Below, piece after piece: positions 29,818 through 43,489 of a stretch of 64,000 nt of DNA. Each line of letters opens with the position of its first letter. Within the stretch, counting starts at the first letter, position 1. Below the pieces are notes generated by a model. It was not told the DNA's origin. It worked only from the letters and a program-made list of their open reading frames with translations, and made no database searches. The stretch comes from Terriglobia bacterium (GTDB lineage: Bacteria; Acidobacteriota; Terriglobia; Terriglobales; Acidobacteriaceae), in contig JAIQGK010000010.1 of the NCBI GenBank assembly GCA_020072645.1, positions 1 through 64,000 of the forward strand, given 5' to 3'. The translations under genes were made by a program, and so were the position numbers.

Positions 29818-31202
29818 TTAGATGGTGCTTCCGCCAGCGGAAGCCATATCTGAAAGCGCGTTTCTCCCGGCTTTGAGTTCACCTGAATCTGCCCGCGATG
29901 CTTGCGTACAATGCGCGAAGCGGTGTCCAATCCCAGTCCTGTGCTCTGGCCAACCCCTTTGGTCGTGAAAAATGGCTCAAAGATGTGCGGCAAAACTTTA
30001 TCTGGAATTCCTGGACCATTGTCTGCAATCTCTACGACCACGCACGCGTCCTCGCGATAGGTGCGTACGCGAAGCTCGCCCTGGCCGCCCATCGCATCAA
30101 TCGCATTGTCAATAACGTTGGTCCAGACCTGATTCAACTCGCTGCCAAAGGAATTCACCAGAAAGGGAACGCGCTGGTAGTCGCGCTGGACTGTGACTCC
30201 GCGCTTGAGCTTGTGGTTCAAAATTGTAAGCGTGGTTTCCAGACTTTTGACAATGTCCACGTTCTGGATGGGAGACTGGTCCATGTAGGTGTATTCCTTG
30301 ATTGCACGGACCAAATCGGAAATTCGCGAGGTGCTGTTTTCAATCTCGTTCAGCAGGTTTGCGATCTCCATGGAAGCTGCAATCCTCATCAGGGCGGCAC
30401 GCGCAGTGTCAGCATCGAGCGTAGCGAATAAACGATCCAAAGCCGCGGGCTGAATGTTTTTATGTGCCAGATCTGACGCAAGCTGCCACAAATCCTCTTG
30501 TTCGTGAGCGCGCAGCCAGGACTCGATTTCTTCCTCCAGCGCGCTGATGGTGAGCGTATCCGGCGGCGGCCCGTCCTGCTGGACAAGTGAAGCCTCCAGC
30601 TTTTCGATCTCGGCTCTCTGTGCGGCGGTGAGATCGTGCGCACCCAGCGCGTGGCTCGCGTCCTTAATGCGCTTCATGGTGGCGCGGAGCTGGCTGGTGG
30701 CGCGCTTAGCGGCCGATGCAGGATTGTTTAGCTCGTGGGCCAGCCCGGCGGAAAGCTTGCCCAGCCCAGCCAGCCGATCCCGTTGTTGCTCAACGCGTGT
30801 GGTTTCGCGGATGCGGTCAGACATGAGACCCACAAGCCGTTGCGTAAGCTCAGGCATTTTCTGTATGAGCTGCGGGAAAGCTGCCACTGGAAAACGCAGC
30901 ACGCGAGCATCAGTAATCGCACGTCCAGTCACCGGGTAGGATTTCATTCTGGAAAAAGGCAGCACGCCCCCGATGTCGCCGGCCTTGCTGTTAAAGAAAA
31001 CTGTCTCGCCGCCAAATTCCCCCCGGCTTTGCAACTGTCCATCAAGGAATACAAACATCGAGTCCGCGGGGTCGCCCTGATGAATGTACGTTTCCCCTGC
31101 CTTCGCTGTGAGTTCCTGTGACTGGCTGATGAACCAGTCAATCTGATCATCCGGCAAATCAGCGAATACCGGCACCTGAAGCAGCTCTGATTTTTGAACC
31201 AT
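29814..31202 (-). CDS. Sensor histidine kinase with N-terminal cyclic-nucleotide-binding-like domain
   Basis: 462 aa, no membrane segment. Residues 1-125 are a cNMP/CAP-like effector domain (FADLPDDQIDWFISQSQELTAKAGETYIHQGDPADSMFVFLDG). The dimerisation/phosphoacceptor helix carries H156 in LSAGLAHELNNPASAAKRA. The ATPase domain shows the N box region NVIDNAIDAMGGQGELRV, G1 IADNGPGIPDKV, F box FEPFFTTK and G2 GQSTGLGLDTASRIV. It lies one base after the receiver/flavoprotein gene, which supplies a receiver domain, so the two form a cytosolic two-component pair. Confidence 0.9.
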   Translation of the reverse strand: MVQKSELLQVPVFADLPDDQIDWFISQSQELTAKAGETYIHQGDPADSMFVFLDGQLQSRGEFGGETVFFNSKAGDIGGVLPFSRMKSYPVTGRAITDARVLRFPVAAFPQLIQKMPELTQRLVGLMSDRIRETTRVEQQRDRLAGLGKLSAGLAHELNNPASAAKRATSQLRATMKRIKDASHALGAHDLTAAQRAEIEKLEASLVQQDGPPPDTLTISALEEEIESWLRAHEQEDLWQLASDLAHKNIQPAALDRLFATLDADTARAALMRIAASMEIANLLNEIENSTSRISDLVRAIKEYTYMDQSPIQNVDIVKSLETTLTILNHKLKRGVTVQRDYQRVPFLVNSFGSELNQVWTNVIDNAIDAMGGQGELRVRTYREDACVVVEIADNGPGIPDKVLPHIFEPFFTTKGVGQSTGLGLDTASRIVRKHRGQIQVNSKPGETRFQIWLPLAEAPSN

Positions 31203-31203
31203 G

Positions 31204-32874
31204 CTATACCTTGCTCAAGTACTGATGAATGAATTGCACCGCCACAGAGCCTTCGCCGACTCCAGAAGCGACGCGCTTGACTGAACCGTGCCGGACATCA
31301 CCCACGGCGAACAGCCCAGGAATATTCGTTTCTAAAAGGAACGGATCGCGTTCCAAAGCCCAACTCTTTGGGCGTTTGCCATTCCACATAAGATCAGGGC
31401 CGGTCAGGATAAAGCCACGCTCGTCTCGTTCCACCAGGTCGCCCAGCCAGTCTGTCCGCGGCAGAGCGCCAATAAAGATGAACATTGAAGTGGCGGGCAC
31501 ACGCTCAACTTTGTTTGTATCTGAACAGAGCACAGAAATTTCTTCCAGGTGAGTTTCACCATGCGCTTCTGCGACGTTGGCGTGGGTCCAAAGCTCGATA
31601 TTGGGTGTTTGCTCTATCTGCTCAATCAAATACTGTGACATGGTGCTGCCAAGAGAAGCGCCGCGCACCAGAATCACCACACGCTCAGCATACTTGGAAA
31701 AATTCATTGCGGCCTGGCCGGCTGAGTTTGCGCCGCCAACCACGTAAACTATTTCACCCTTGCAGGAGAGAGCTTCAGTAGAACCGCCGCCGTAATAAAC
31801 TCCAGCGCCCTGAAGGCGATCAATGCCGGGAGCATCCAACCTGCGCCACTGGACTCCTGTGGCCACCATCAAGGCGTGGCAGGAGATTTCACTCTCGTCT
31901 TTTAGCTTGATGATGCGATAAGAGCCTTCCGTCCGAACGCCGATGGCTTCCTGCGGCGAAAGAATTTCCACGCCAAAGCGTTTGGCCTGCACCACGGCCC
32001 GACGCGCAAGGTCGCCGCCGCTCAAGCCGTTCGGAAAGCCGAGATAGTTTTCAATTCGCGAACTCATACCTGCCTGGCCGCCGGGAGCGTCGCATTCCAC
32101 GATTACCGTATGCAGGCCTTCAGACGCGCCGTAAACCGCAGCAGCCAGGCCAGCAGGCCCGCCGCCGATGATTGCAAGGTCATAAAAATCAGTCTGCGCG
32201 CGAGTACGCAAGCCTACTTTCTGCGCGACTTCAGCCGGAACACTCTCAAGAAGTTTTGTGCCATCAGGGAACAGCACAACCGGAAGGCTTGCGGATTCGG
32301 AGCCAAGCGCCTCGAGCAACCGCTTGGTTTCAGGATCATTGGCGGAAATTTCCACGTCAATCCATTGATAGGGAACTCGATTGCGCGCCAGAAAATCGCG
32401 CAGCTCATAAGAACGCGGCGACCATCGGGTGCCCAGCACACGGATTCCCTCAAACGTGGGACGGTAAGAAGCCTGCCAATCATCGAGCAGATCATCCAAT
32501 TGCGGATAGAGGTGCTCTTCCGGCGGGTCCCAGGGCTTCAGGAAAAAATAATTGATGTTGACCTGGTTGATGGCGCTGATGGCGGCATTCGTATCGGCGT
32601 ATGCAGTAAGCAAGGCGCGCTTGGCGTCGGGAAAGAGATGCATTGCTTCCTGAAGAAAAGCGACGCCATCCATTTTGGGCATGCGCTGATCGGCCAGGAG
32701 CAGGGCCACGTTGTCATTCCGCACTTTCAATTGCTTCAAGAGTTCCAAAGCTTTTTCAGGAGCATCACTCGCCAGCACACGATAAGTGGCGCCGTAATGC
32801 GAACGCAGGTCGCGTTCAATGGCTCGCAAAACATCAGAATCGTCGTCAATACAAAGCAAAATCGGTTTCGCCAT
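31204..32874 (-). CDS. Response-regulator receiver fused to thioredoxin-reductase-like flavoprotein
   Basis: 556 aa, three parts. Residues 1-125: receiver domain with acidic pocket D10/D11/D12, phosphoacceptor D62 (ADQRMPKMDG), T90 and K113. Residues about 140-225: glutaredoxin/thioredoxin-fold spacer (IRVLGTRWSPRSYELRDFLARNRVPYQWIDVE) with the usual CxxC replaced by TRWSP. Residues 230-556: FAD/NAD(P)H reductase (IIGGGPAGLAAAVYGASEG, YVVGGANSAGQAAMNFSKYA, GLFAVGDVRHGSVKRVASGVGEGSVA). The catalytic CATCDG of thioredoxin reductase is missing (AGVYYGGGSTEAL instead). Phosphorylation by the adjacent kinase may gate a flavin redox output. Confidence 0.88.
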   Translation of the reverse strand: MAKPILLCIDDDSDVLRAIERDLRSHYGATYRVLASDAPEKALELLKQLKVRNDNVALLLADQRMPKMDGVAFLQEAMHLFPDAKRALLTAYADTNAAISAINQVNINYFFLKPWDPPEEHLYPQLDDLLDDWQASYRPTFEGIRVLGTRWSPRSYELRDFLARNRVPYQWIDVEISANDPETKRLLEALGSESASLPVVLFPDGTKLLESVPAEVAQKVGLRTRAQTDFYDLAIIGGGPAGLAAAVYGASEGLHTVIVECDAPGGQAGMSSRIENYLGFPNGLSGGDLARRAVVQAKRFGVEILSPQEAIGVRTEGSYRIIKLKDESEISCHALMVATGVQWRRLDAPGIDRLQGAGVYYGGGSTEALSCKGEIVYVVGGANSAGQAAMNFSKYAERVVILVRGASLGSTMSQYLIEQIEQTPNIELWTHANVAEAHGETHLEEISVLCSDTNKVERVPATSMFIFIGALPRTDWLGDLVERDERGFILTGPDLMWNGKRPKSWALERDPFLLETNIPGLFAVGDVRHGSVKRVASGVGEGSVAVQFIHQYLSKV

Positions 32875-33009
32875 AACAACCTACGTTCAGTTATTCAGAA
32901 CTGCTTTCGCTAATCGCCAGTGAAGAGACAATTTAGATGCCGGCGTGGGAATTTGGTCGCTTTATTCACAAGTAGCCGACTGAATAGCGATTCCGGCGGG
33001 TCGAGCAAC

Positions 33010-33408
33010 TCAATGAGATTCAGGCAGTGTGTACTCGAACTCGTACGAGTGTTTGCCGTCGGCTATGATGACCTTAAAATCTCCGGTTATTCCTGCCAGT
33101 TGGCCCGTTCCGGAATCAGGCACCACGGTGATCGTCAGTTGCGGCAAGCCCCGGTTCATGGTTCCCGTATGCTGCAAGATGAAAGTGCCGGTGCGGCCTT
33201 TCAATGTTCCGCTTACCTTCTCAATTGCCACGTAACCGGCTGACCCTTTCACGTCGGTCATGCCCGTGAGCATCTGGCCTTTGCTGGTTCCTTCCAGATC
33301 GCCGTGAAATTGCTTGTCAATTGTCATCCGGCCAAGTGTGGCGTCGCCATTCTTGTCATCTGTTTGAGGCACAAGTTTTACTTCGAACGTTCCACTGGCA
33401 TGACTCAT
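33010..33408 (-). CDS. DUF3224 domain protein
   Basis: 132 aa from the ATG at 33408, which has SD AAAGGA seven bases upstream. The frame is open for another 46 residues with a hydrophobic segment, but the short form matches family length. Body: ASGTFEVKLVPQTDDKNGDATLGRMTIDKQFHGDLEGTSKG, LKGRTGTFILQHTGTMNRG and SGTGQLAGITGDFKVIIADGKHSYEFEYTLP, the DUF3224 beta-barrel (avidin-like fold in the family). Function unknown. Confidence 0.85.
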   Translation of the reverse strand: MSHASGTFEVKLVPQTDDKNGDATLGRMTIDKQFHGDLEGTSKGQMLTGMTDVKGSAGYVAIEKVSGTLKGRTGTFILQHTGTMNRGLPQLTITVVPDSGTGQLAGITGDFKVIIADGKHSYEFEYTLPESH

Positions 33409-33575
33409 GGCTGGTCCTTTCTGAAATGCACTTGCGATCAATGGATGTGTGCACGTCCATGAGACGACCCCAATCGACAGGCACATAACGATGATGGGTT
33501 TGAAGCGGCGATGGACTTTTGCGACAACGCGAACACTGTTTTTCACCCAAGCATTCTAGCGCAGCGCCAGGATCA

Positions 33576-34052
33576 TCACTCAGGCGACTGCGGGCGTTTG
33601 AATACCAGGCACTTTGAAGTGAATGAATGTACCGCTTCGCCATTCTGGTTCGACGTGATGCTTCTCACTTTAACGATGGCCTGGTTTGGCTTGGAACGTG
33701 AAGGCACTATTTCCAGGATCTCGCTTTCCACGTGCAGCGTGTCACCGGGACGCGTTGGTTTGGGCCACGCCAGATCGCCGCCCAGGCCGATAATGCCGTT
33801 GCCCAGCGGCAGACCGCCATCCACGAGCAGGCGCATCGCGACGGCGGCAGTGTGCCATCCGCTGGCGGCCAGTCCGCCAAATATGCTGGCTTTCGCAGCT
33901 CCTTCATCAAGGTGGAAAGGCTGCGGGTCAAACTGTCGCGCGAACTCCTTGATTTGAGATTCATCCATGTAGTGGCTGCCAGAGACAAATCGCTGGCCCA
34001 CGTGAAGGTCTTCCAGATACAGTCTCTGGAGGCTTTCATTTGTTTGGCTCAT
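33576..34052 (-). CDS. MaoC-like hotdog-fold dehydratase
   Basis: 158 aa. The hydratase-2 signature region is present: YLEDLHVGQRFVSGSHYMDESQIKEFARQFDPQPFHLDEGAAKASIFGGLAASGWHTAA, with the catalytic D-x(4)-H pair in FDPQPFHLD. WPKPTRPGDTLHVESEI is the usual central motif. Probably R-specific enoyl-CoA hydration or a related acyl-CoA reaction in the cytosol; the pathway partner is not nearby. Confidence 0.88.
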   Translation of the reverse strand: MSQTNESLQRLYLEDLHVGQRFVSGSHYMDESQIKEFARQFDPQPFHLDEGAAKASIFGGLAASGWHTAAVAMRLLVDGGLPLGNGIIGLGGDLAWPKPTRPGDTLHVESEILEIVPSRSKPNQAIVKVRSITSNQNGEAVHSFTSKCLVFKRPQSPE

Positions 34053-34134: not shown

Positions 34135-35292
34135 CTATACTTCCACCAGCTCACCCCGATCATTGACTTCAATACGCTTGGAAGCATGGAGCGGGATGCC
34201 GAGTTGATAGCGAGTATGTCGCAATTCTCCCATGCGGACCAATGCGCCTTTTTCGACAAGATCTGCAAGATCGCGCGTCGTAGTAGCCGGGGACGTACCG
34301 GTGATGCTGGCGTACTTGCCCGCTGAAAGTCCGCCCTTGAATCCATCCGGGCCTTCCTTGAACATACGGAGCAATGCCTTTTGCTGTCTTTCGTTCATCT
34401 GTCCCCGCAGGCGCTCAAATAGTTTGGCTTTGTCGATCAGGAATTCGATCATGGCAAGCGTTCGCCTCTGGGCTTCTATCGTTATGCCTGCAAACCAGGC
34501 CAGCCATCCGGTGATTTCGGTTTGTCTGTTTGCGGCTTCCAACGCATCGTAGTAGCTTCTGCGCCGTGCAAGGATCGTCGCCGCCAGAGCGGTAAGCGTA
34601 GGCTGGCCCAGACTTTGTGCCAGCGCTTTCTCCGCCAGCGCGCGCCCAATTCGTCCATTTCCGTCCTCAAACGGATGGATGCATTCAAAGTAAAGATGAG
34701 CGGTTCCTGCCCTGGTGAGCCCAGGCAAGGGTTCTGGTCCTCCCGCGGCAGTCCGGTTAAACCAGGCAATAAATCGCTTCATCTCGCCGGGCACCTGGTC
34801 CGCCGGTGGAGCCTGGAAATGCACTTTTGTCTTTCCCAGAGGCCCGGAAACTATTTCCATCGGCTCCCTGCCGGTGCGATAGCGGCCGACATCTGTGAGG
34901 TCACGGCGGCCGCTCATCAGCATGCGGTGCCAGCCAGAAAGCATTTCTTTGGAAATGGGCTCGCCAAACGAACGAAATAGATCGACCGTCATTTCGGCAA
35001 CGCCCCGCTCGGCGGGCCGCACGTTCCGTTTGTCGGCGGCCAAGCCAAGCTGCTTGCGTATGGAAAATTGGACGCTTGCCCGGTCCAGCAGTTCGCCCTC
35101 GATTTCCGAGGTCGTTATCGCCTCCGTGCTCATCGAGTCCACGGTAATGTGTTCGCGCTCTTCCTTGTCCAGGTGCTTGACCGTGCCCGCGAGTTTGCCG
35201 CCGGCTATCAAGAACTCTTTTTCCGCCAGTGCCAGCCGAGCCGCTTCCCAGCTGAACTCCGGCCAATCCGATTTTTGCCAATTCCAGGTCAT
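34135..35292 (-). CDS. Fic family protein (DUF4172-Fic-winged helix)
   Basis: 385 aa. N-terminal DUF4172-like helices contain the autoinhibitory motif T61-S-E-I-E65-G66 ((S/T)xxxE(G/N)), so this is a class II, self-inhibited Fic protein. The active site is complete: H206PFEDGNGRIGR. The C-terminal quarter is a winged-helix domain (SAGKYASITGTSPATTTRDLADLVEKGALVRMG), which can bind DNA. Fic proteins usually transfer AMP from ATP to a target hydroxyl. A perfect palindrome touches its start codon and more half-sites follow upstream, suggesting autoregulation. Confidence 0.92.
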   Translation of the reverse strand: MTWNWQKSDWPEFSWEAARLALAEKEFLIAGGKLAGTVKHLDKEEREHITVDSMSTEAITTSEIEGELLDRASVQFSIRKQLGLAADKRNVRPAERGVAEMTVDLFRSFGEPISKEMLSGWHRMLMSGRRDLTDVGRYRTGREPMEIVSGPLGKTKVHFQAPPADQVPGEMKRFIAWFNRTAAGGPEPLPGLTRAGTAHLYFECIHPFEDGNGRIGRALAEKALAQSLGQPTLTALAATILARRRSYYDALEAANRQTEITGWLAWFAGITIEAQRRTLAMIEFLIDKAKLFERLRGQMNERQQKALLRMFKEGPDGFKGGLSAGKYASITGTSPATTTRDLADLVEKGALVRMGELRHTRYQLGIPLHASKRIEVNDRGELVEV

Positions 35293-36558: not shown

Positions 36559-37605
36559 TTATGTAATTAATGAAGCAGCCGCCCATATCTTTTCAAGCGT
36601 ATTCCGAAGGGTTTGAATGGCATTGACATCTTCAAGTTTATTTATCAGCGACAGTTTTCCACCAAATCCATTGAGAGAATGCCCCAATGCGTACCATTGT
36701 GCATTGTCAACCGAAATTGTTCGATCGTGAATTTCCGCAGAATGCTTGCGTACTTCTATTTGGTGCTGCGGATATTGCCTTCTAAAACGGCTGACAGAAA
36801 CTTTAAAATCAGGATTGGCCTTTCCTGTGAGCAAGCGAATTTTGATTTTGTGAGGCAATGCCGCAACCATATCAAGAACATCACCATTCATATAATTATC
36901 GACAATAAAAATCTCCCGCTTCGCGGATTGCAGAATTTGTTTAATTGCTTTGTATGCGTCCCACTGTGTTCCCTTGGGAAATACATATTCACTGGCGAGC
37001 TTTGTCCCATGACTGGACTCATAGAGGCTCACCAATTTCTCAGTAACATGTGGGGTATCGCGCTCCTGTCCTTTCCCACCCAGCAAGCGCCGTTGCGTAA
37101 GAAGCCAAATGACGCGCCTTATATCACTATATTCAATTCCTAAATAATCGTAATCAGTATGATTTTCATACTCCGCAGTGTATAAGCCCACACGAGGATT
37201 CAGCTTATAACCGAGCCAATACGCCTTGTGCATTATGTATTGCATGAGTTCGGCATCCGTCACTTTGGCATGAGGCTCGAAATCAGAGTTTTTAATTTTC
37301 AGTTCTTTATACTGGACCTCATCGAAGGGAGCATCGAAATCCAGCTCTCTTGAATCCAGCGCACGACGAATTACATTGATGCCTATTTTGTATTCAATAT
37401 CAGAAGCAATCCCCTGCTTAACGGGTCGCCCTGCATGATATAGCTGCACAAGTCTCTGACCGCGATTGTGGGCTGCATCCTTAATTTCGAATAAATACGA
37501 AGAACCTGTTCGGTGCGGATCATCTTCGACCCGATCATAGGCAATAGAGACGCACTCTCCTCCGAGCGTTACCCAATCCGAAAAATGCATTTGGTCTAAA
37601 GTCAT
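36559..37605 (-). CDS. Uncharacterised protein with PLD-like C-terminal domain
   Basis: 348 aa from the ATG at 37605. The N-terminal two thirds are unrecognised (possible winged-helix stretch DAELMQYIMHKAYWLGYKLNPRVGLYTAEY). The C-terminus reads AIKQILQSAKREIFIVDNYMNGDVLDMV ... IRLLTGK ... IHDRTISVDNAQWYALGHSLNGFGGKLSLINKL, the strand order and HD(R/K)/GxS(L)NxxG pattern of phospholipase D-like domains, with HDR in place of HxK. Such domains occur in nucleases and defence effectors. It ends 25 bp left of the attL repeat, so it was the chromosomal neighbour of the tRNA site before the element arrived. Confidence 0.6.
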   Translation of the reverse strand: MTLDQMHFSDWVTLGGECVSIAYDRVEDDPHRTGSSYLFEIKDAAHNRGQRLVQLYHAGRPVKQGIASDIEYKIGINVIRRALDSRELDFDAPFDEVQYKELKIKNSDFEPHAKVTDAELMQYIMHKAYWLGYKLNPRVGLYTAEYENHTDYDYLGIEYSDIRRVIWLLTQRRLLGGKGQERDTPHVTEKLVSLYESSHGTKLASEYVFPKGTQWDAYKAIKQILQSAKREIFIVDNYMNGDVLDMVAALPHKIKIRLLTGKANPDFKVSVSRFRRQYPQHQIEVRKHSAEIHDRTISVDNAQWYALGHSLNGFGGKLSLINKLEDVNAIQTLRNTLEKIWAAASLIT

Positions 37606-37629
37606 CTGATATTGCGGACGGACTGCCAA

Positions 37630-37703
37630 TGCCTACCCAGCAGATTCAATGATTTAAGTGGTAGGCCCGAATGGACTCGAACCATCGACCTCTTCCGTGT
37701 CAA
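37630..37703 (-). repeat. attL: 74-bp direct repeat with 3' half of tRNA-Val
   Basis: Matches 43384-43457 at 73 of 74 positions (single difference at 37653/43407). On the minus strand it holds the tRNA-Val 3' half from the anticodon loop to the encoded CCA (37659-37703) plus 29 bp of downstream flank. The 5' half is absent here, so this is a displaced tRNA remnant left by integration. Confidence 0.9.
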
Positions 37704-37779
37704 AAACGAGGTCACTAACCTAAAACCCTTTGGTTGCCGTTGTTTTCCGCATTGCAGTACCCCTCAAAACACCGCTTTT

Positions 37780-37811
37780 TTGACGAGTTTTGTTGACGAA
37801 TTGTTGACGAG
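37780..37811 (+). repeat. Direct repeats TTGACGA(G/A), possible integrase arm sites (left)
   Basis: TTGACGAG at 37780-37787, TTGACGAA at 37793-37800 and TTGACGAG at 37804-37811, spaced 13 and 11 bp. Similar words occur near the right end (43338-43355). Close, in-phase repeats beside att are typical of integrase arm-binding sites; the role is inferred. The rest of 37704-37952 shows nothing else. Confidence 0.45.
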
Positions 37812-37952
37812 TTTTTCTGTTGAGTTCGTCGCCAATTTCTGCAACATTGAAACTGTCTTTAGGAAGGTCTTTCCTGAGATGAAAAACAGCGGGACGCGCT
37901 TGGTGGTGAGACCGAAACGCGCCCCTGACCAAAGCACCTACGTGGAGGCACC

Positions 37953-38303
37953 TTGGCTGATCTTGACGTTACCAAAAAAGTAGAAATTTATCACACCCTA
38001 TACCAGCTTAACTCCTCATTTGCAGCAATCGTAGGACACTGCGACACGTTGCAGCGAACCGGAGTTTTCAGGTCCAAATCTACCCGATTGTTTCAAGGAT
38101 TCACCCAAGAATTACAAGCAGAATGTAATCAGGAATTCTTGGAGACCTTGCACCAAATCGAACTTGACGACTGGGGCCGTTTCGGCAAAGTGCGTCAAGC
38201 GGAAGAAAAACGTCTCAGAGACCCTGACGACGTTTTCATTCAGGCCGCAGAGCGAAAAAAGGAACTCGCCAAACAGCGCAAGAAATCTAGCCGCAAGAGA
38301 TAG
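37953..38303 (+). CDS. Element-encoded hypothetical protein, 116 aa
   Basis: Starts at a TTG with SD GGAGG at 37944-37948. Reads MADLDVTKKVEIYHTLYQLNSSFAAIVGHCDTLQRTG..., a helical protein whose end is very basic (KKELAKQRKKSSRKR), suggesting nucleic-acid contact. No homologue recognised. A strong terminator follows 30 bases after the stop, so it forms its own transcription unit at the left end of the element. Confidence 0.6.
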   Translation: MADLDVTKKVEIYHTLYQLNSSFAAIVGHCDTLQRTGVFRSKSTRLFQGFTQELQAECNQEFLETLHQIELDDWGRFGKVRQAEEKRLRDPDDVFIQAAERKKELAKQRKKSSRKR

Positions 38304-38332
38304 CAAGAACAAAAAAGCCGAAGGAAAGAATC

Positions 38333-38359
38333 AACCCGCCCCACTCAGGCGGGTTTTTT
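38333..38359 (+). terminator. Rho-independent terminator
   Basis: Stem AACCCGCC / GGCGGGTT with a 7-base loop, running into six T (38354-38359). Confidence 0.88.
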
Positions 38360-38464
38360 CTTCAAGCAACAAATCTGGAATAAAAGTCATCTAGGCGCGA
38401 TTGCCCTTGCTGAGTAACTTGGGGGCAGCATAAAATTGCGGCCAACAAGAAAGGCTGCAAATCT

Positions 38465-38827
38465 ATGGCACATCACATGAGCGACAGAGCCGTGAAGCTA
38501 GCGAATGCACTGCTTCAGCACCAAAGGAGATTTCGACGCGAGCCTAAAAACGTAAATCAGAAATCTGTAGAAAAAGCGATTATCGCCTATCAGGCAATTG
38601 GTACAAATGCGCATATCGGCTGGAGAGACATTGGCCAACCTCTGCGTGACATCGCGGAATGGTGCGATGAACAAGGGTGGCCGCCTCTTAATTCCTTAGC
38701 AGTAAACAACAAGACCCATGAACCCAGCAAGGAATATGACGGTGCAGGAAATTTCCAGCTAGCTCAATGGTGTTATGACGTCAGAAAATGTATTGGTTTT
38801 AGTGGCTACCCAAAGAAGGTTACCTAA
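38465..38827 (+). CDS. Element-encoded hypothetical protein, 120 aa
   Basis: MAHHMSDRAVKLANALLQHQRRF... then IGWRDIGQPLRDIAEWCDEQGWPPLNSLAVNNKTHEPSKEYDGAGNFQLAQWCYDVRKCIGFSGYP. The run of PLNSLAVN, a glycine-rich turn and W..DV..CI.F..YP is a pattern I have seen in uncharacterised bacterial proteins, but I cannot name it. Soluble, no signal peptide. Preceded by the terminator of the gene before it. Confidence 0.6.
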   Translation: MAHHMSDRAVKLANALLQHQRRFRREPKNVNQKSVEKAIIAYQAIGTNAHIGWRDIGQPLRDIAEWCDEQGWPPLNSLAVNNKTHEPSKEYDGAGNFQLAQWCYDVRKCIGFSGYPKKVT

Positions 38828-38908
38828 TCCCGCGAATCTCCCCGCCGTCTCGGGCATACAGCACACAAAAGAGCATAGCCGAAGACAAACCGTGGTATAT
38901 TGCGCGGC

Positions 38909-39382
38909 ATGGACTCGCTGATTAAATGGCCCTCGAATCATCCCATCGTCTTTACGTTGATTCTGTTTGTTTTTAGCTCGCTCGTTTCCATATATGCATC
39001 TGAAATCAAGCGATTCCTTCGTGAGCGCCCGCTCAAATTCAAGGAATACAATCAGCAGCAGTTCGCAAGAGACCTTGCCCTTTTGCAGCGTCTTCACAAT
39101 GACAGCTATCAGCTCATTCTCTTTTTCCTGTGGAATATTGTCTCGATTATTTATGCCGCGGTTTTGTGGACTGGGATCTTCTTTTTATTGTCTTTCATGA
39201 CGCATAACAAGATTGCTGCGGTACCGTTGTCTAGCGCCATTATTGGGGTCGCTTTTGGAAAGGCGTTATTGATTCGGCAGCTTCTTACACGACTTGTTAA
39301 CTATGAGCATAGTGTCATTCACCTGAAAAAACTAGCTGGAATTCCTGAATCAAATGTAACGTCGGCTTCAAGTGGCAACTGA
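38909..39382 (+). CDS. Element-encoded membrane protein, 157 aa
   Basis: Starts at the ATG at 38909. Three hydrophobic helices: residues about 10-30 (HPIVFTLILFVFSSLVSIYA), 75-103 (YQLILFFLWNIVSIIYAAVLWTGIFFLLSF) and 109-130. The cytosolic loop is basic (KRFLRERPLKFKEYNQQQFARDLALLQRLH). No family recognised. Small multi-helix membrane proteins on mobile elements may act in exclusion or immunity, but nothing here shows that. Confidence 0.55.
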   Translation: MDSLIKWPSNHPIVFTLILFVFSSLVSIYASEIKRFLRERPLKFKEYNQQQFARDLALLQRLHNDSYQLILFFLWNIVSIIYAAVLWTGIFFLLSFMTHNKIAAVPLSSAIIGVAFGKALLIRQLLTRLVNYEHSVIHLKKLAGIPESNVTSASSGN

Positions 39383-39599
39383 TTGGTTCCCGCTCGCCAA
39401 AAAAACACGCTTCACGTTCCCTTCAATTTTTTACAGACAAACTCAAAGCCGTTCCACCTTTTTGAAGGGACTAAAACTTGAGTTTTTCTCGGAGCCATGC
39501 GACAAAATGCCATTCTAATGAGTTTCCACTCGCGTATAATCCCGCTGCTATGACACAGTTGTTGGTTCTTTACCGGATCAGAGGTTAGCATACGGTCTC

Positions 39600-40343
39600 G
39601 TGCCCGACCACTCTGAACAATCTGCTCAGGCTGTAAACCTGCTCACCGAAGCGGAAGCTGAGGATGTCATAGACCGATTTGTAGAAAGATTTTTCAGTTC
39701 AGAGAGCACAACTCTCCGCTGGCTGCTGAACAAGGGGTGGTCTCATCCCGAATACATGTCACTTGTGGCGCGTTCCTGGGGTATGCCTGAGATTCCAGAA
39801 CAGGCAAGAATCGACCTCTTACGGTGTATCGAAACAAACGATAAAGTGAGCTTGAAATCGTGGCTTGTAAAGCTTGAGTCCCGCGACGGCATGACACGCG
39901 AGCAAGCTAAGGCTCTTTTTTCGTTATTCGATCTTTCTCCTTTACGGAAGATTCTTCTGGACTTGGCAGAAACATTCAAGGGTACGCAAGGTCGCCAGCC
40001 GAAGTTGAAACTTGCTGATTATCCCAGGCTCATCCAGGTCGCCGACTCTCTATCTCCTCTGATAGGAAAAATCCTCTCTCAACTGGAACAGTCAACGAAG
40101 AAGACCGCGCTCGAAACTGTGATGTTTTGGCAAGCGGATCACCCGGAAGCTGCTGGCTTTTTGCTCAGTTACTACAAGCAATTTGAACTCGCACTTCATG
40201 ACGCTACCCTAAAGAGACGGAGCAAACGCCCCGCCACTCGTGCGAAGTTGCTCGCGGAGGCCATGGCAGGAATGGAATATGGGCTGACTTTCAGTACCTC
40301 CATCGAACGGGTACGGCAGGCGCGGCGAATGCAACAATCCTAA
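39600..40343 (+). CDS. Element-encoded hypothetical protein, 247 aa
   Basis: GTG start. Acidic N-terminus (LTEAEAEDVIDRFVERFF), helical body and a basic C-terminal tail (LKRRSKRPATRAKLLAEAMAG). No motif recognised. The 217 bp before it shows no gene. It ends 112 bp before the first arm of the inverted-repeat region. It could be an accessory or regulatory protein of replication, on position only. Confidence 0.5.
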   Translation: MPDHSEQSAQAVNLLTEAEAEDVIDRFVERFFSSESTTLRWLLNKGWSHPEYMSLVARSWGMPEIPEQARIDLLRCIETNDKVSLKSWLVKLESRDGMTREQAKALFSLFDLSPLRKILLDLAETFKGTQGRQPKLKLADYPRLIQVADSLSPLIGKILSQLEQSTKKTALETVMFWQADHPEAAGFLLSYYKQFELALHDATLKRRSKRPATRAKLLAEAMAGMEYGLTFSTSIERVRQARRMQQS

Positions 40344-40455
40344 TCACCCTTCAAACAAAAGAATCTTTTCTTTGTGATATTGGGTCGCCTTCCGCTACTT
40401 TTCTTTCTTTTTGGTAGCGCAAGCCTCCGTTTTGATAACCCTAGGGCTGGGGCAT

Positions 40456-40656
40456 CATTCACGGCCCCTGCTCAACCTTAGAACCCGCAACGAAGGACTG
40501 ACAGACCATTCGACGGGTGACAACGTACGGCAGCAGGGGCCATGAATGCTGGTCGGGGTTCTACGAAAGTAAAGCACTGCCGGGGTTGGAGGCAAAGAGT
40601 CTGTCTGGGGGTCCAGGGGGCGAAGCCCCTTGGTGGGGTTCGGGGCGAAGCCCCGA
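40456..40656 (+). other. Nest of inverted repeats upstream of rep: candidate replication origin
   Basis: Outer pair: CATTCACGGCCCCTGCT (40456-40472) and AGCAGGGGCCATGAATG (40532-40548), 16 of 17 positions, 59-base spacer. Then two tight hairpins with GAA loops: 40615-40631 and 40640-40656, both built on GGGGCGAAGCCCC. A TTCTTGATT word follows at 40669-40677, similar to the nick site of pC194-type rolling-circle origins. Clustered stems directly in front of an HUH initiator suggest its origin; the nick site is speculative. Confidence 0.5.
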
Positions 40657-40686
40657 CAGTTGTTCCCATTCTTGATTCCCCCAGGT

Positions 40687-41310
40687 GTGTCCAAAGGTGG
40701 GCCGAATTTGAGGAATTCACATCAGGACGGGTGTACTTGCAAGAGCTGCTTTGCGCAATCAATGGGGAAATGGATTGATGAGCTAGGAACAAGAACAGTA
40801 TCAGGAGAATGGCAGATTTTTGGAACGATCACTTACGCCACTCGCAACTATCCCTGGCGGAGAGGTTTTCCGACTAGTGGCAATGGCCGCCCGCATCCCG
40901 ACTTCGCGCACAATTTTTTTACGCGTTTTGTGAACCATCTCGAATCCGACCTCAGAACAAGAGTGGACTATGTGGTCGCCGATCAGTTTGGGGAAATCGG
41001 GGGCCGATTTCATCAACACGCAATATTGGCAGCTTGCGGGCTTGACCGTTACTCACGTACTGAGCTTTGGAAGTGGGTGCAGGAAAAAGCCGGATGGAAT
41101 CGAATTCTCCCATTTGAACGCGGAGCAGCGTTTTACATTTCGCGTTACATCGGCCGAGATGCACACAAGTGCGACTGGAATTTCCGTGTCGGCGAAATGG
41201 ATTCCTCTCTGACCACTCCTAAGCCCGCTCCCGGAAAAACTGTCCTTGTGCAAAGTGCTCCTGTCGAGAAGGCGTTTTATCACGCGGGCTTCCACAGAAG
41301 AAAGAGGTAA
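40687..41310 (+). CDS. rep: HUH-type rolling-circle replication initiator
   Basis: About 207 aa from a GTG at 40687; the true start is uncertain (TTG 40630 or ATG 40762 are alternatives). Three Rep motifs in order: motif I FGTITY (45-50), motif II GGRFHQHAIL with the metal-binding HxH at 109-111, and motif III AAFYISRYIGRDA with candidate nucleophile tyrosines Y150/Y154. A CTCKSC cluster lies near the N-terminus. The protein should nick one strand at the origin and stay attached to the 5' end. No helicase domain, so host helicase would be needed. RNase HI follows 4 bp later. Confidence 0.78.
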   Translation: MSKGGPNLRNSHQDGCTCKSCFAQSMGKWIDELGTRTVSGEWQIFGTITYATRNYPWRRGFPTSGNGRPHPDFAHNFFTRFVNHLESDLRTRVDYVVADQFGEIGGRFHQHAILAACGLDRYSRTELWKWVQEKAGWNRILPFERGAAFYISRYIGRDAHKCDWNFRVGEMDSSLTTPKPAPGKTVLVQSAPVEKAFYHAGFHRRKR

Positions 41311-41314
41311 TCAG

Positions 41315-41728
41315 ATGAAAAATGCAGTTCCCATTGAAATTCACATTGACGGTAGCGGAGCAAGGCCAGACGGCAAGGGTTCTGGTTTTGCGTGGATACA
41401 GCCGCAGAGCGGAAAGAGCGAAATTATTCAAAAAGACCATCTGACAAATAATCAAGCAGAATACAACGGCTTGTTAGCGGCCCTCAGCTCATTACCCCCA
41501 AAGAGCGCAGCCCTTGTATTTACAGATTCTCAAATTGTCTCCGAACAATTTAATGGACGTTATCAGGTGCATGATTCCGCTTTGCGCGAATTGCTGACTG
41601 AGATCAAAGGACTGATTCGAAGAAATTCTCTGAAGGTTTCTGTTAAGTGGATTCCGCGCAGAGCGAACCTAGCCGATGGACTGCTCAAGAGAGGTCTGCA
41701 ACGTAACGTTGGGGAGATTTCCCTTTGA
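41315..41728 (+). CDS. rnhA: Ribonuclease HI
   Basis: 137 aa from the ATG at 41315 with SD AAAGAGG. All four catalytic acids are visible: D12 (HIDGSG), E49 (NNQAEYNGLLAAL), D71 (VFTDSQIV) and D121 (PRRANLADGLLKRG). It cleaves the RNA strand of RNA-DNA hybrids. It belongs to the archaeal/bacterial short RNase HI type rather than the E. coli type with a basic protrusion. Lying between rep and the zinc-ribbon gene in one operon, it probably removes primers or R-loops during element replication. Confidence 0.87.
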   Translation: MKNAVPIEIHIDGSGARPDGKGSGFAWIQPQSGKSEIIQKDHLTNNQAEYNGLLAALSSLPPKSAALVFTDSQIVSEQFNGRYQVHDSALRELLTEIKGLIRRNSLKVSVKWIPRRANLADGLLKRGLQRNVGEISL

Positions 41729-42132
41729 CTGCTCATCTTCCATGTTTCTTGTGCAGAGCCGACCTCGAAATAAGGAAGGACAAAAACGGGAAGCGATACT
41801 TCATTTGTGACGAGTGCGGAGTCCAGGCGTTTGTCAGGCGCAAAACAGGAATTTCCCGCCTTGCAAAACTCGTGCGTCAATTGAAAAAGGGAAATTCAAA
41901 AGGAATTCGGGAAAATAAATCCCCGTTTGAAATCGGCGCAATACTCACCGAAATTGACGAACTCAAAAAGCAAATCAAAAAACTGAAAGCAAAGAGCGGA
42001 TTGTTCTCTGCGGATCGCAACTCAAGGCGAATCGCGGCAGCATTACAAGAGCGAGTAAATGCTTTGTTATCAATGCTGGAAAAGCACGCAAAAAACGTGC
42101 GGCCAATTGCAAAAACAAAAAACATTTCTTAA
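41725..42132 (+). CDS. Zinc-ribbon coiled-coil protein, 135 aa
   Basis: TTG start overlapping the RNase HI stop by 4 bp. A C4 zinc ribbon (C7-x2-C10 ... C28-x2-C31; LPCFLCRADLEI and YFICDECGVQ) is followed by a basic linker and a coiled coil (ILTEIDELKKQIKKLKAKSG). Likely a small DNA- or protein-binding accessory factor of the element. No named family. Confidence 0.7.
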   Translation: MTAHLPCFLCRADLEIRKDKNGKRYFICDECGVQAFVRRKTGISRLAKLVRQLKKGNSKGIRENKSPFEIGAILTEIDELKKQIKKLKAKSGLFSADRNSRRIAAALQERVNALLSMLEKHAKNVRPIAKTKNIS

Positions 42133-42215
42133 TTCTTTTTGGAATAAGCGTGAATATACTTCCAATCGCGGAAAAGCAACGGCAGCCAGACCAGTTAGGA
42201 GGCTGGCAAAAAGAG

Positions 42216-43406
42216 ATGGCACGCCGTCGCTATCAAAAAGGAAGTTTGCGAATACGCGGCAAAATAAATCAGGTTTGGGAGTTGCTTTGGCGGGAGGATT
42301 ACATAAAGGAAAACGGAACGATTGGCCGGCGATTGGCTTCCAAGGTCATCGGCCCGGTTCGCCAGTTTACACGCCGACAAGCGTGGAAACTTGCAGAGGA
42401 ATTCCTGCGCCCGCTGAATCAAGGGAAGATCACGCCCCATTCGACAATACTCTTTCGGGAATTTGTCGAACGGTATTTTATTCCGAATGTGTTTCCGACC
42501 TTGAAACTGCCAACCCAGACGCGTTATCGCCGCACACTCAAAAACCATCTATTACCTGCTTTTGGGGAATATCGCCTTTGCGAACTTGGCACTCTGGACA
42601 TTCAATCGTTTGCGCTCAAGAAATTGGAGAGCGGATTAGGTTCGGCTTCCGCCGACCTTTTCAAAAACCTGATGTCCAAAATTTTTGCCACAGCAAAAAA
42701 GTGGAACTATTTCGCGGGCGAAAATCCTGCAAGCGGAGTGGAATTACCGGAATACAAACCAGTGAAACAGAGGCACATTCTCACTGCGGAACAAATCCCG
42801 GTGCTGCTGGACGCACTAAGAGAGCCTTATCGCACAATGGTTCTTTTGGCGCTTCTCACAGGCTTACGAGTCGCAGAGATTCTAGGTCTCAGGTGGGAGG
42901 ATGTGGATTTTTCCTCTTCCGTCCTATCGGTAAGCCAGAGGTGCTATCGCGGTCAGATGGACACTCCAAAAACCAAAAACAGCAAACGATCACTTCCTTT
43001 GCCCCTGCCGTGTGTGGAAGCACTGAAACGGCATCGGGCAAAGCAACAAACCCCGGACGGCCCCGGACTGGTTTTTCAGACAAGCAACGGGACTCCGTAC
43101 GGAGATACAAACATCCTTCACAGAGAGCTAAAACCCGCCGGAAAGAAGATCGGCGCTCCCTGGCTGAGCTGGCACACCTTCAGACGGACTCACGCAACGT
43201 TATTGCAGTTCGTGGGCGGGAGTCTGAAAGACGCGCAAGCGCAGTTAGGGCATTCCAAACTCTCTACCACGCTCGACTTCTACACATTCGAGATTCCCGC
43301 GCATCAGCGCGAGGCAGTTCAGAGATTAGGGGAATTGTTGACTAATGTTGACGAATCTCGCCAATCCGTCCAAAAACTGCCGCTGCCTACCCAGCAGATT
43401 CAATGA
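42216..43406 (+). CDS. int: Tyrosine recombinase / phage-type integrase
   Basis: 396 aa from the ATG at 42216 (AGGAGG 13 bases upstream; a GTG at 42150 adds 22 residues). N-terminal MARRRYQKGSLRIRGK and SAM-like core-binding domain, then the catalytic domain: R218 (LLTGLRVAEILGLRW), H320-x-x-R323 (WHTFRRTHATLL), H346 (QLGHSKLSTT) and Y356 nucleophile (DFYTF). Its last seven codons and stop lie inside the attR repeat, so integration or excision keeps the reading frame. It should catalyse integration into the tRNA-Val 3' half. Confidence 0.93.
   Translation: MARRRYQKGSLRIRGKINQVWELLWREDYIKENGTIGRRLASKVIGPVRQFTRRQAWKLAEEFLRPLNQGKITPHSTILFREFVERYFIPNVFPTLKLPTQTRYRRTLKNHLLPAFGEYRLCELGTLDIQSFALKKLESGLGSASADLFKNLMSKIFATAKKWNYFAGENPASGVELPEYKPVKQRHILTAEQIPVLLDALREPYRTMVLLALLTGLRVAEILGLRWEDVDFSSSVLSVSQRCYRGQMDTPKTKNSKRSLPLPLPCVEALKRHRAKQQTPDGPGLVFQTSNGTPYGDTNILHRELKPAGKKIGAPWLSWHTFRRTHATLLQFVGGSLKDAQAQLGHSKLSTTLDFYTFEIPAHQREAVQRLGELLTNVDESRQSVQKLPLPTQQIQ
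43338..43355 (+). repeat. Repeats TTGAC(T/G)AA, possible integrase arm sites (right)
   Basis: TTGACTAA (43338-43345) and TTGACGAA (43348-43355), 10 bp apart within the 3' end of int, matching the triple repeat near attL. Confidence 0.4.
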
Positions 43407-43457
43407 GTTAAGTGGTAGGCCCGAATGGACTCGAACCATCGACCTCTTCCGTGTCAA
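43384..43457 (-). repeat. attR: 74-bp direct repeat
   Basis: Right copy of the repeat at 37630-37703. Here the tRNA 5' half follows directly, so the tRNA gene is whole; its 3' half was supplied by the element. Confidence 0.9.
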
Positions 43458-43489
43458 GGAAGCGCTCTAACCAACTGAGCTACGGGCCT
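43413..43489 (-). tRNA. tRNA-Val (anticodon GAC), CCA encoded
   Basis: Full cloverleaf on the minus strand: acceptor AGGCCCG/CGGGCCT, D arm with AGTTGGTTA loop, anticodon stem CTTCC/GGAAG around TTGACAC (anticodon GAC), T arm GATGG-TTCGAGT-CCATT, discriminator A and encoded CCA. It is the integration site of the element on its left. Confidence 0.95.

What the first reader, a model, noticed from the sequence alone, without database searches (positions are those of the whole stretch)
37630..43457. Integrated element with HUH Rep, RNase HI and tyrosine integrase at tRNA-Val
A 5.8-kb A+T-rich segment is flanked by 74-bp direct repeats carrying the tRNA-Val 3' half. It holds rep (FGTITY, HxH, YISRY motifs), RNase HI with all four catalytic acids, a zinc-ribbon coiled-coil gene and an integrase, tightly packed in that order, plus four unknown genes. 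No capsid, secretion or relaxase gene is seen. An integrative rolling-circle element that brings its own RNase HI is not one I know as a described class. The gene content is direct observation; 'integrated plasmid or satellite' is inference.
Basis: partly seen in the sequence, partly recalled or inferred. Interest (0 to 1): 0.85.

Follow-up and report, generated by a model that had tools for sequence, protein, structure and literature searches.

The report
Integrating rolling-circle element with own RNase H
A small mobile DNA element sits in a tRNA gene of an Acidobacteriaceae-type bacterium and carries a rolling-circle replication starter next to its own RNA-removing enzyme, a pairing found again in related bacteria alongside a different integration enzyme, which suggests that the two work together to copy the element.

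Summary
Observation confirmed. Window 37,704-43,375 is an integrated element: 82-bp (96%) repeats ending in the tRNA-Val(GAC) anticodon loop, an intact tRNA on the right, and an element-free tRNA in a congener. It encodes four small unknown genes, then rep-rnhA-ZnR-int in operon-like packing. The full block was found once more, decayed, at a tRNA-Val half-gene in an Acidobacteriaceae MAG. The recurrent unit is smaller: rep-rnhA. Of 398 family genomes sampled, 4 (this one included) carry this Rep at E<1e-60, and all 4 have rnhA directly downstream; two of them use a different integrase lineage. The element RNase HI branches apart from presumed host copies. Two tandem hairpins precede rep; two blocks are 51/53 identical between elements whose Reps are about 30% identical, so this is probably the origin. 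In three related Rep-int loci an SSB-like gene sits where rnhA sits here. Best reading: an integrative rolling-circle replicon whose RNase HI serves its replication (primer or R-loop removal). Weaker Rep relatives lack rnhA, so it is not general. No relaxase, FtsK-type Tra or capsid family was matched. New variant of a known kind; transfer route and RNase HI function are untested.

The parts
37622..37703 (.). left att repeat (attL): tRNA-Val 3' half 37659-37703 plus a 37-bp int-tail relic 37622-37658
37953..38303 (+). orf1, 116 aa, unknown; followed by a terminator-like hairpin 38333-38355 (the scan finds no more such sites than shuffles do)
38465..38827 (+). orf2, 120 aa, unknown
38900..39382 (+). 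orf3, about 160 aa, long hydrophobic segments (read by eye), unknown
39600..40343 (+). orf4, 247 aa, helical by AF2 (mean pLDDT 67); homologues upstream of related integrases
40494..40665 (+). putative double-strand origin: conserved blocks 40494-40509 and 40593-40629, and two tandem hairpins before rep
40630..41310 (+). rep, HUH rolling-circle initiator (start uncertain: TTG 40630, TTG 40672 or GTG 40687)
41315..41728 (+). rnhA, RNase HI, 137 aa, element-type branch
41725..42132 (+). ZnR: CxxC...CxxC zinc ribbon plus a charged, probably coiled-coil part, 135 aa; overlaps the rnhA end by 4 bp
42150..43406 (+). int, tyrosine integrase, 418 aa; its 3' end lies inside the right repeat
43376..43457 (.). 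right att repeat (attR)
43413..43489 (-). tRNA-Val(GAC), intact, target gene

Best explanation
It is a 5.75-kb integrative rolling-circle replicon. SHOWN from sequence: insertion in the 3' half of tRNA-Val(GAC), with a tyrosine integrase at the tRNA end; a HUH-type Rep preceded by a conserved tandem-hairpin region; an RNase HI, on a branch apart from presumed host copies, directly downstream of rep. INFERRED: Int excises the element as a circle. Rep nicks the hairpin origin and drives rolling-circle synthesis. The RNase HI acts in that replication, by removing the RNA primer(s) of complementary-strand synthesis and/or R-loops formed when the G-rich origin just upstream of rep is transcribed. 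ZnR is an accessory of replication or excision. Orf1-3 are cargo or regulators, orf4 a conserved accessory. Spread between cells would need a helper route (conjugation, transduction or transformation), since no transfer or packaging gene is recognisable.
For: Att repeats and intact tRNA. Congener G609 has the same tRNA without the element, with 87-90% identical flanking blocks. Related integrases (>=50% identity) end beside a complete tRNA-Val in 12 of 16 fetched loci L048-L063, a tRNA-Asp in one, no called tRNA in three. Rep profile: 4 of 398 family genomes at E<1e-60, window genome included, all 4 with rnhA adjacent. Two of these carry an integrase 27-30% identical to the window's and 66% to each other. 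Six element-type RNase HIs split from 27 other copies at 100/99 support. The host has two further RNase_H-family genes and an RNase HII. Origin: 35/37 + 16/16 identical bases between window and L099; hairpins in all three elements, z -2.5, -3.3, -2.4; motif once in the 6.4-Mb genome, reversed control 0. SSB-like gene ending EDDVPF / DEDFPF / DADIPF between rep and int in L052, L198, L038, none of which shows rnhA.
Against: No excised circle or replication was observed. Only four Rep-rnhA pairs are known and may share one origin; L096 and L099 are on contigs of 3.6 and 5.0 kb, L002 is decayed. Nine weaker Rep relatives (E 2e-14 to 0.007) exist: the six fetched (L195-L200) show no rnhA, so such Reps do not generally need it (L200 ends 0.6 kb past its Rep). 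The fourth catalytic Asp is Gly in L096, L002 and L115. L096 does not share the origin sequence blocks, only the hairpin layout and the rep start. The SSB call rests on a recalled tail motif, with no supporting Pfam or PDB hit. The RNase HI tree carries a long-branch warning and is midpoint-rooted. The Rep AF2 model is useless (pLDDT 43). L098 has the RNase HI without this Rep.
Confidence: 0.68

Rival explanations
1. Same integrative element, but RNase HI serves integration or excision: it clears R-loops from the transcribed tRNA gene or att site so that Int can act.
For: In window, L002, L096, L099 and L115 rnhA lies just 5' of the recombination module (HTH or ZnR, then int); in L115 no rep is seen because the contig starts there.
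Against: rnhA stays with this Rep while the integrase lineage changes; 0 of the 16 loci with the closest integrases (L048-L063) show rnhA, though several are cut short upstream.
Confidence: 0.15
2. Phage satellite or degenerate provirus: a Rep of microvirus ancestry with packaging supplied by a helper phage.
For: Closest annotated phage proteins are microviral replication initiators: 24-27% identical to the window Rep over part of its length, 34% to the L099 Rep; no own transfer genes.
Against: No capsid, terminase or portal family among the eight proteins; orf4 fold search without match (model of middling confidence); IMG/VR scans for Rep (two), ZnR and Int gave no relative and the exact ori motif no match.
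Confidence: 0.1
3. Integrative mobilizable element: the HUH protein is a relaxase and the hairpin region an oriT, moved by a conjugative helper.
For: The origin block has short 84-96% matches (28-50 bp, E 3e-4 to 0.05) in four plasmids, one of them just upstream of mobC in a MOBP plasmid.
Against: Rep aligns with replication families (PF23343; weak PHROG replication-initiator hits) and not significantly with relaxases (NCBIfam RlxS E 0.18); another of the short matches lies in a plasmid typed non-mobilizable, upstream of its rep gene.
Confidence: 0.12
4. RNase HI is passenger cargo or a counter-defence gene without replication role.
For: The host has other RNase_H-family genes and RNase HII already; L098 carries the gene without this Rep; the weaker Rep relatives lack it.
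Against: Rep-rnhA adjacency in 4 of 4 with overlapping or closely spaced genes, own branch, alternation with an SSB-like gene; no significant PADLOC match (best E 0.03).
Confidence: 0.15

Closest known systems
Actinomycete integrative and conjugative elements (AICEs: pSAM2, pMR2)
   Same: tyrosine (or serine) integrase, att-bounded, rolling-circle HUH initiator (RepSA) in a rep-xis-int order (PMC3218068, passages seen; tRNA att sites of pSAM2 recalled)
   Different: no FtsK/SpoIIIE-type Tra matched; Rep is PF23343-type, not RepSA; carries RNase HI; host is Acidobacteriota
Integrative and mobilizable elements (IMEs)
   Same: int, att sites, small size, helper needed for any transfer (definition recalled)
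   Different: no relaxase family matched; oriT not tested
Phage satellites (PICI, P4-like)
   Same: small, integrated, no structural genes (definition recalled)
   Different: no packaging gene or helper link found
Microviruses (gokushovirus-type Rep/VP4)
   Same: distant HUH Rep similarity, 24-27% (window) and 34% (L099) identity
   Different: no capsid family matched; has integrase and RNase HI
Temperate archaeal virus SNJ2 (PMC13107129, abstract and passages seen)
   Same: integrated element, rolling-circle initiator, hairpin origin, integrase gene part of the replication operon after circularisation
   Different: archaeal virus; initiator of Rep-Arvir/Rep_trans type, not HUH; 'RNase H' occurs 0 times in its main text

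Membership tests
HUH rolling-circle initiators (REP_ORF2-G2P, PF23343) | motifs I, II (HxH) and III (Tyr) in one domain | tested here: met
   FGTITY, HQH, YISRY; Pfam E 8.4e-5 (23.2 bits, cut-off 27.8) for the window Rep; Reps of L196, L198, L098 and L054 pass the cut-off; profile comparison with those and three other Reps 99.2%. Motif names recalled.
HUH rolling-circle initiators (REP_ORF2-G2P, PF23343) | predicted HUH fold | tested here: inconclusive
   AF2 model mean pLDDT 43, not searched; no PDB sequence relative
RNase HI | DEDD catalytic acids and RNase H domain | tested here: met
   all four acids in window and L099; fourth is Gly in L096, L002, L115. Residue roles recalled.
tRNA-integrating tyrosine-recombinase element | integrase plus att repeats that restore the tRNA, and an element-free site elsewhere | tested here: met
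   in G609 the DNA between the tRNA and the syntenic left flank differs from the window's, so the left border is not a base-by-base empty site
AICE | FtsK/SpoIIIE-type Tra | tested here: not met
   no such Pfam or NCBIfam match in the eight proteins
AICE | RepSA or RepAM initiator | tested here: not met
   window Rep matches PF23343 only
IME | relaxase | tested here: not met
   (RlxS E 0.18, not significant)
IME | functional oriT | not testable with these tools
   needs a mating assay; short matches do not decide
Phage satellite | packaging or helper-interference genes | tested here: not met
   no family match; no relatives in IMG/VR scans
Microviridae provirus | major capsid protein | tested here: not met
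   no match in Pfam or PHROGs
Autonomous replicon | excised circle that replicates | not testable with these tools
   no reads or culture

The most novel reading that the evidence does not exclude
A previously unnamed class of integrating rolling-circle replicons in Acidobacteriota has an ori-rep-rnhA core in which RNase HI is a dedicated replication factor, acting at a G-rich hairpin origin where an R-loop forms and is removed; sister lineages fill the same slot with an SSB. Integrases and cargo (restriction-modification and others) are swapped around this core.
Probability: 0.4. Interest if true: 0.72.

Novelty: new variant of a known kind. Interest (0 to 1): 0.58.

Why it matters
Complementary-strand priming in rolling-circle replicons is normally left to the host machinery (PMC5714925, passages). 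An element lineage that keeps its own RNase HI beside Rep, although the host has other RNase H genes, points to a step of rolling-circle replication that the host enzymes may not serve well, and gives a small system (ori, rep, rnhA) in which to test R-loop control of a rolling-circle origin. It also opens part of the mobilome of Acidobacteriota, including tRNA-Val insertion sites that were entered repeatedly.

Tried and rejected
Window Rep alone against 396 phylum genomes: only itself; the 4-row profile on 396 phylum genomes gave the same, the relatives being in the denser family sample. Plasmid collection: no Rep relative and no orf2 relative. Phage collection: no ZnR relative, no ori match, Int at most about 28% in the rows listed (8 of 121). 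IMG/VR: no relative of Rep (two scans), ZnR or Int, no exact ori motif. The RNase HI profile returned 80 loci of 297; only L115 has element-type RNase HI by score, with rnhA-HTH-int at tRNA-Ser and the contig cut before any rep. In one search none of the loci L115-L194 gave a Rep hit at E<=0.01. Orf4 as nuclease or capsid: Pfam TnsA E 0.051 (not significant), no PDB fold match at E<=0.001 with a model of pLDDT 67. Missing host RNase H as reason for the gene: rejected. Host RNase HI as source: not supported by the tree (a first tree used wrongly oriented host rows and was discarded). Rep structure: confidence too low to search. Promoter-like sites were fewer than in shuffles (1 against 5.2) and terminator-like sites as many (9 against 8.6), so nothing rests on them. 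Short plasmid matches to the origin do not decide between dso and oriT. A phylum-wide RNase HI search was not run (one search failed; one search covered the family instead). Papers: searches returned none; the listed rows of 58 (20 of 66), (20 of 75; 15 of 61; 4 of 4; 10 of 13; 10 of 3,711) show no title or abstract start describing a Rep-RNase HI integrative element. This covers only the open-licence library, these terms and the rows listed. Seen: PMC12324425 abstract and section list; PMC5714925, PMC3218068 and PMC13107129 passages; nothing else was opened.
Full report
OBSERVATION. A direct repeat of 82 bp (96%) lies at 37622-37703 and 43376-43457, 5,754 bp apart. ARAGORN finds an intact tRNA-Val(GAC) at 43413-43489 on the minus strand; it also calls a tRNA-Val on the left half-copy, which I take as false. 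The repeat ends at 43457, in the anticodon loop, and the left copy holds only the 3' half of the tRNA (45 bp identical). A core motif occurs at just these two places, against none in shuffles. Element GC is 0.488 against 0.549 in the window outside 33.9-43.49 kb. Genes on the plus strand: orf1-orf4, then rep (stop 41310), rnhA (41315-41728), ZnR (41725-42132) and int (42150-43406).

THE LEFT BORDER. The repeat runs 37 bp past the tRNA into the end of int, so the left copy looks like the tail of an older, related int. Congeners show the history of the site. G609 matches window 30,687-33,934 and blocks from the tRNA rightwards at 87-90% identity, and its tRNA has no element and no int tail; but the 5.5 kb between its tRNA and that left flank differ from the window's DNA. 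G520 keeps what looks like a decayed int tail beside the same tRNA. I infer that window DNA from about 34 to 37.6 kb is an older insert. Repeats that run into the int tail also occur in L051 (154 bp, 91%) and L057 (163 bp, 96%).

PROTEINS. Rep: PF23343 REP_ORF2-G2P, E 8.4e-5, 23.2 bits against a cut-off of 27.8. The nearest annotated phage proteins are microviral replication initiators, 24-27% identical to the window Rep and 34% to the L099 Rep, over part of the protein. Profile comparison with seven other Reps from Acidobacteriota loci, four of which have a tyrosine integrase nearby (L054, L196, L198, L199), gives 99.2% probability. RNase HI: both Pfam families over cut-off; best solved relative by sequence 3hst (E 8.8e-18). 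Int: Phage_integrase 3.9e-22. ZnR: four conserved cysteines, 41-43% identical to proteins in L060, L065 and L197, and related to a broken one in L002. Orf1-3: no family found. Orf4: homologues in L051, L052, L054, L055 and twice in L057, upstream of the integrases; AF2 helical, pLDDT 67, no PDB match.

RECURRENCE. RNase HI against 398 family genomes: 102 match at E<=1e-8, but only five stand out (E<=2.1e-21): G000, G579, G603, G735, G608; the next match is at 2.1e-12. In the tree, six element-type copies (these five and L115) split from 25 of those other matches plus the two further RNase_H genes of the host at 100/99, with a long-branch warning. The Rep profile against 398 family genomes: 13 match at E<=0.01, four at E<1e-60 (G000, G579, G608, G603), and those four all have rnhA directly downstream. 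The fifth RNase HI genome, G735 (L098), lacks this Rep but has another PF23343 protein about 4.2 kb upstream, a second RNase H-like frame and a protein that I read as a serine recombinase. In L096 (G579) and L099 (G608) the pair is followed by one and two HTH_17 genes and an integrase 66% identical between the two but 27-30% identical to the window's, next to sequences that I read as 3' halves of tRNA-Ser and tRNA-Lys; ARAGORN calls no tRNA there. So rep-rnhA is the stable unit and the integration module changes. Against this: of the nine weaker Rep matches I fetched six (L195-L200), none with rnhA.

THE INTEGRASE SIDE. 29 of 397 order genomes match Int at E<=1e-60, the window's own included. 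Of the 16 loci fetched with >=50% identity (L048-L063), 12 have a complete tRNA-Val at the int end, one a tRNA-Asp followed by a tRNA-Val, three no called tRNA. None of the 16 shows rnhA, though several are cut short upstream. Some carry other cargo and other Reps: L052 has genes that I read as type III restriction-modification, plus an orf4 homologue, a Rep_1-type Rep (E 2.2e-16) and an SSB-like gene, between 47-bp att repeats 11,253 bp apart. L065, with a more distant Int (39%) at tRNA-Pro, has an HsdM-type methylase and a ZnR.

ORIGIN. Between the end of orf4 and rep the window shares 35/37 and 16/16 identical bases with L099, although the Reps are about 30% identical. In the window, L096 and L099 hairpins precede rep; single-strand folds are better than shuffles (z -2.5, -3.3, -2.4). 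Two tandem hairpins are clear in the folds of window and L096; in L099 the first is, the second I see in the sequence but the minimum-energy fold pairs it otherwise. The motif is found once in the 6.4-Mb genome with up to two mismatches, reversed control none. The hairpin block is G-rich on the rep-coding strand in all three (skew +0.27, +0.23, +0.16), though one other place in the element, near the start of int, is as skewed. L096 does not share the sequence blocks, and short partial matches exist in four plasmids, one beside mobC. The assignment as double-strand origin is likely, not proven.

THE SLOT. Three related Rep-int loci (L052, L198, L038) have a 121-148-residue frame between rep and int that ends in EDDVPF, DEDFPF or DADIPF, the tail typical of SSB proteins (recalled motif). 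No Pfam or PDB hit supports it. Among 32 loci examined together, none has both this gene and the RNase HI. RNase HI and SSB both handle single-stranded intermediates, which favours a replication role. RNA primers on the displaced strand are described for rolling-circle replicons (PMC5714925, passages; 'RNase H' occurs 0 times there); their removal by this RNase HI is my inference.

WHAT IT IS NOT. No relaxase, FtsK-type Tra, capsid, terminase or portal family was matched by the eight proteins. IMG/VR scans gave no relative of Rep, ZnR or Int. One IMG/VR contig (L115) has the RNase HI with an HTH-like gene and an integrase at tRNA-Ser, beside genes that I read as phage-type, and begins just before rnhA.

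VERDICT. An integrative rolling-circle element, new variant of the AICE/integrative-plasmid kind, with a conserved rep-rnhA pair as its surprising feature. The identity as an integrated element is nearly certain; the replication role of RNase HI is the best inference and is directly testable.

Noticed in passing
window 36559-37629 (-): PLD-like protein matching PADLOC candidate defence family PDC-S05 (E 7.9e-29), left of the element.
   Followed up: partly
window 34135-35292 (-): Fic/DOC protein with DUF4172 N-terminus, left of the element; this stretch has no blastn match in the G609 or G520 loci.
   Followed up: partly
L098 8552-9537 and 3901-4383: RNase HI followed by a second RNase H-like frame; a different PF23343 Rep upstream and a protein read as a serine recombinase downstream.
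   Followed up: partly
L057 6102-8467 and 13999-16694: Two very similar orf4-like / small protein / int units on one contig, the first int shorter (315 against 427 aa): repeated insertion or duplication.
   Followed up: no
L053, reverse-complement coordinates 64-918: Open frame made of a repeated 12-residue unit alternating with variable segments; by eye it looks like a translated CRISPR array near the element integrase.
   Followed up: no
L052 and L065: Related integrase loci carry restriction-modification genes as cargo: type III-like by eye in L052, HsdM by Pfam in L065.
   Followed up: partly
L115 80-1911: IMG/VR contig with element-type RNase HI, HTH-like gene, integrase and tRNA-Ser; the tRNA points the opposite way from the window's layout, and genes read as phage-type lie beyond.
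   Followed up: partly
L096, L002, L115: Fourth catalytic Asp of RNase HI is Gly (AGK) in three of the six element-type copies.
   Followed up: partly
L210 (G520), beside the tRNA-Val: Decayed integrase tail next to the same tRNA gene in a congener without a detected Int of this clade.
   Followed up: partly
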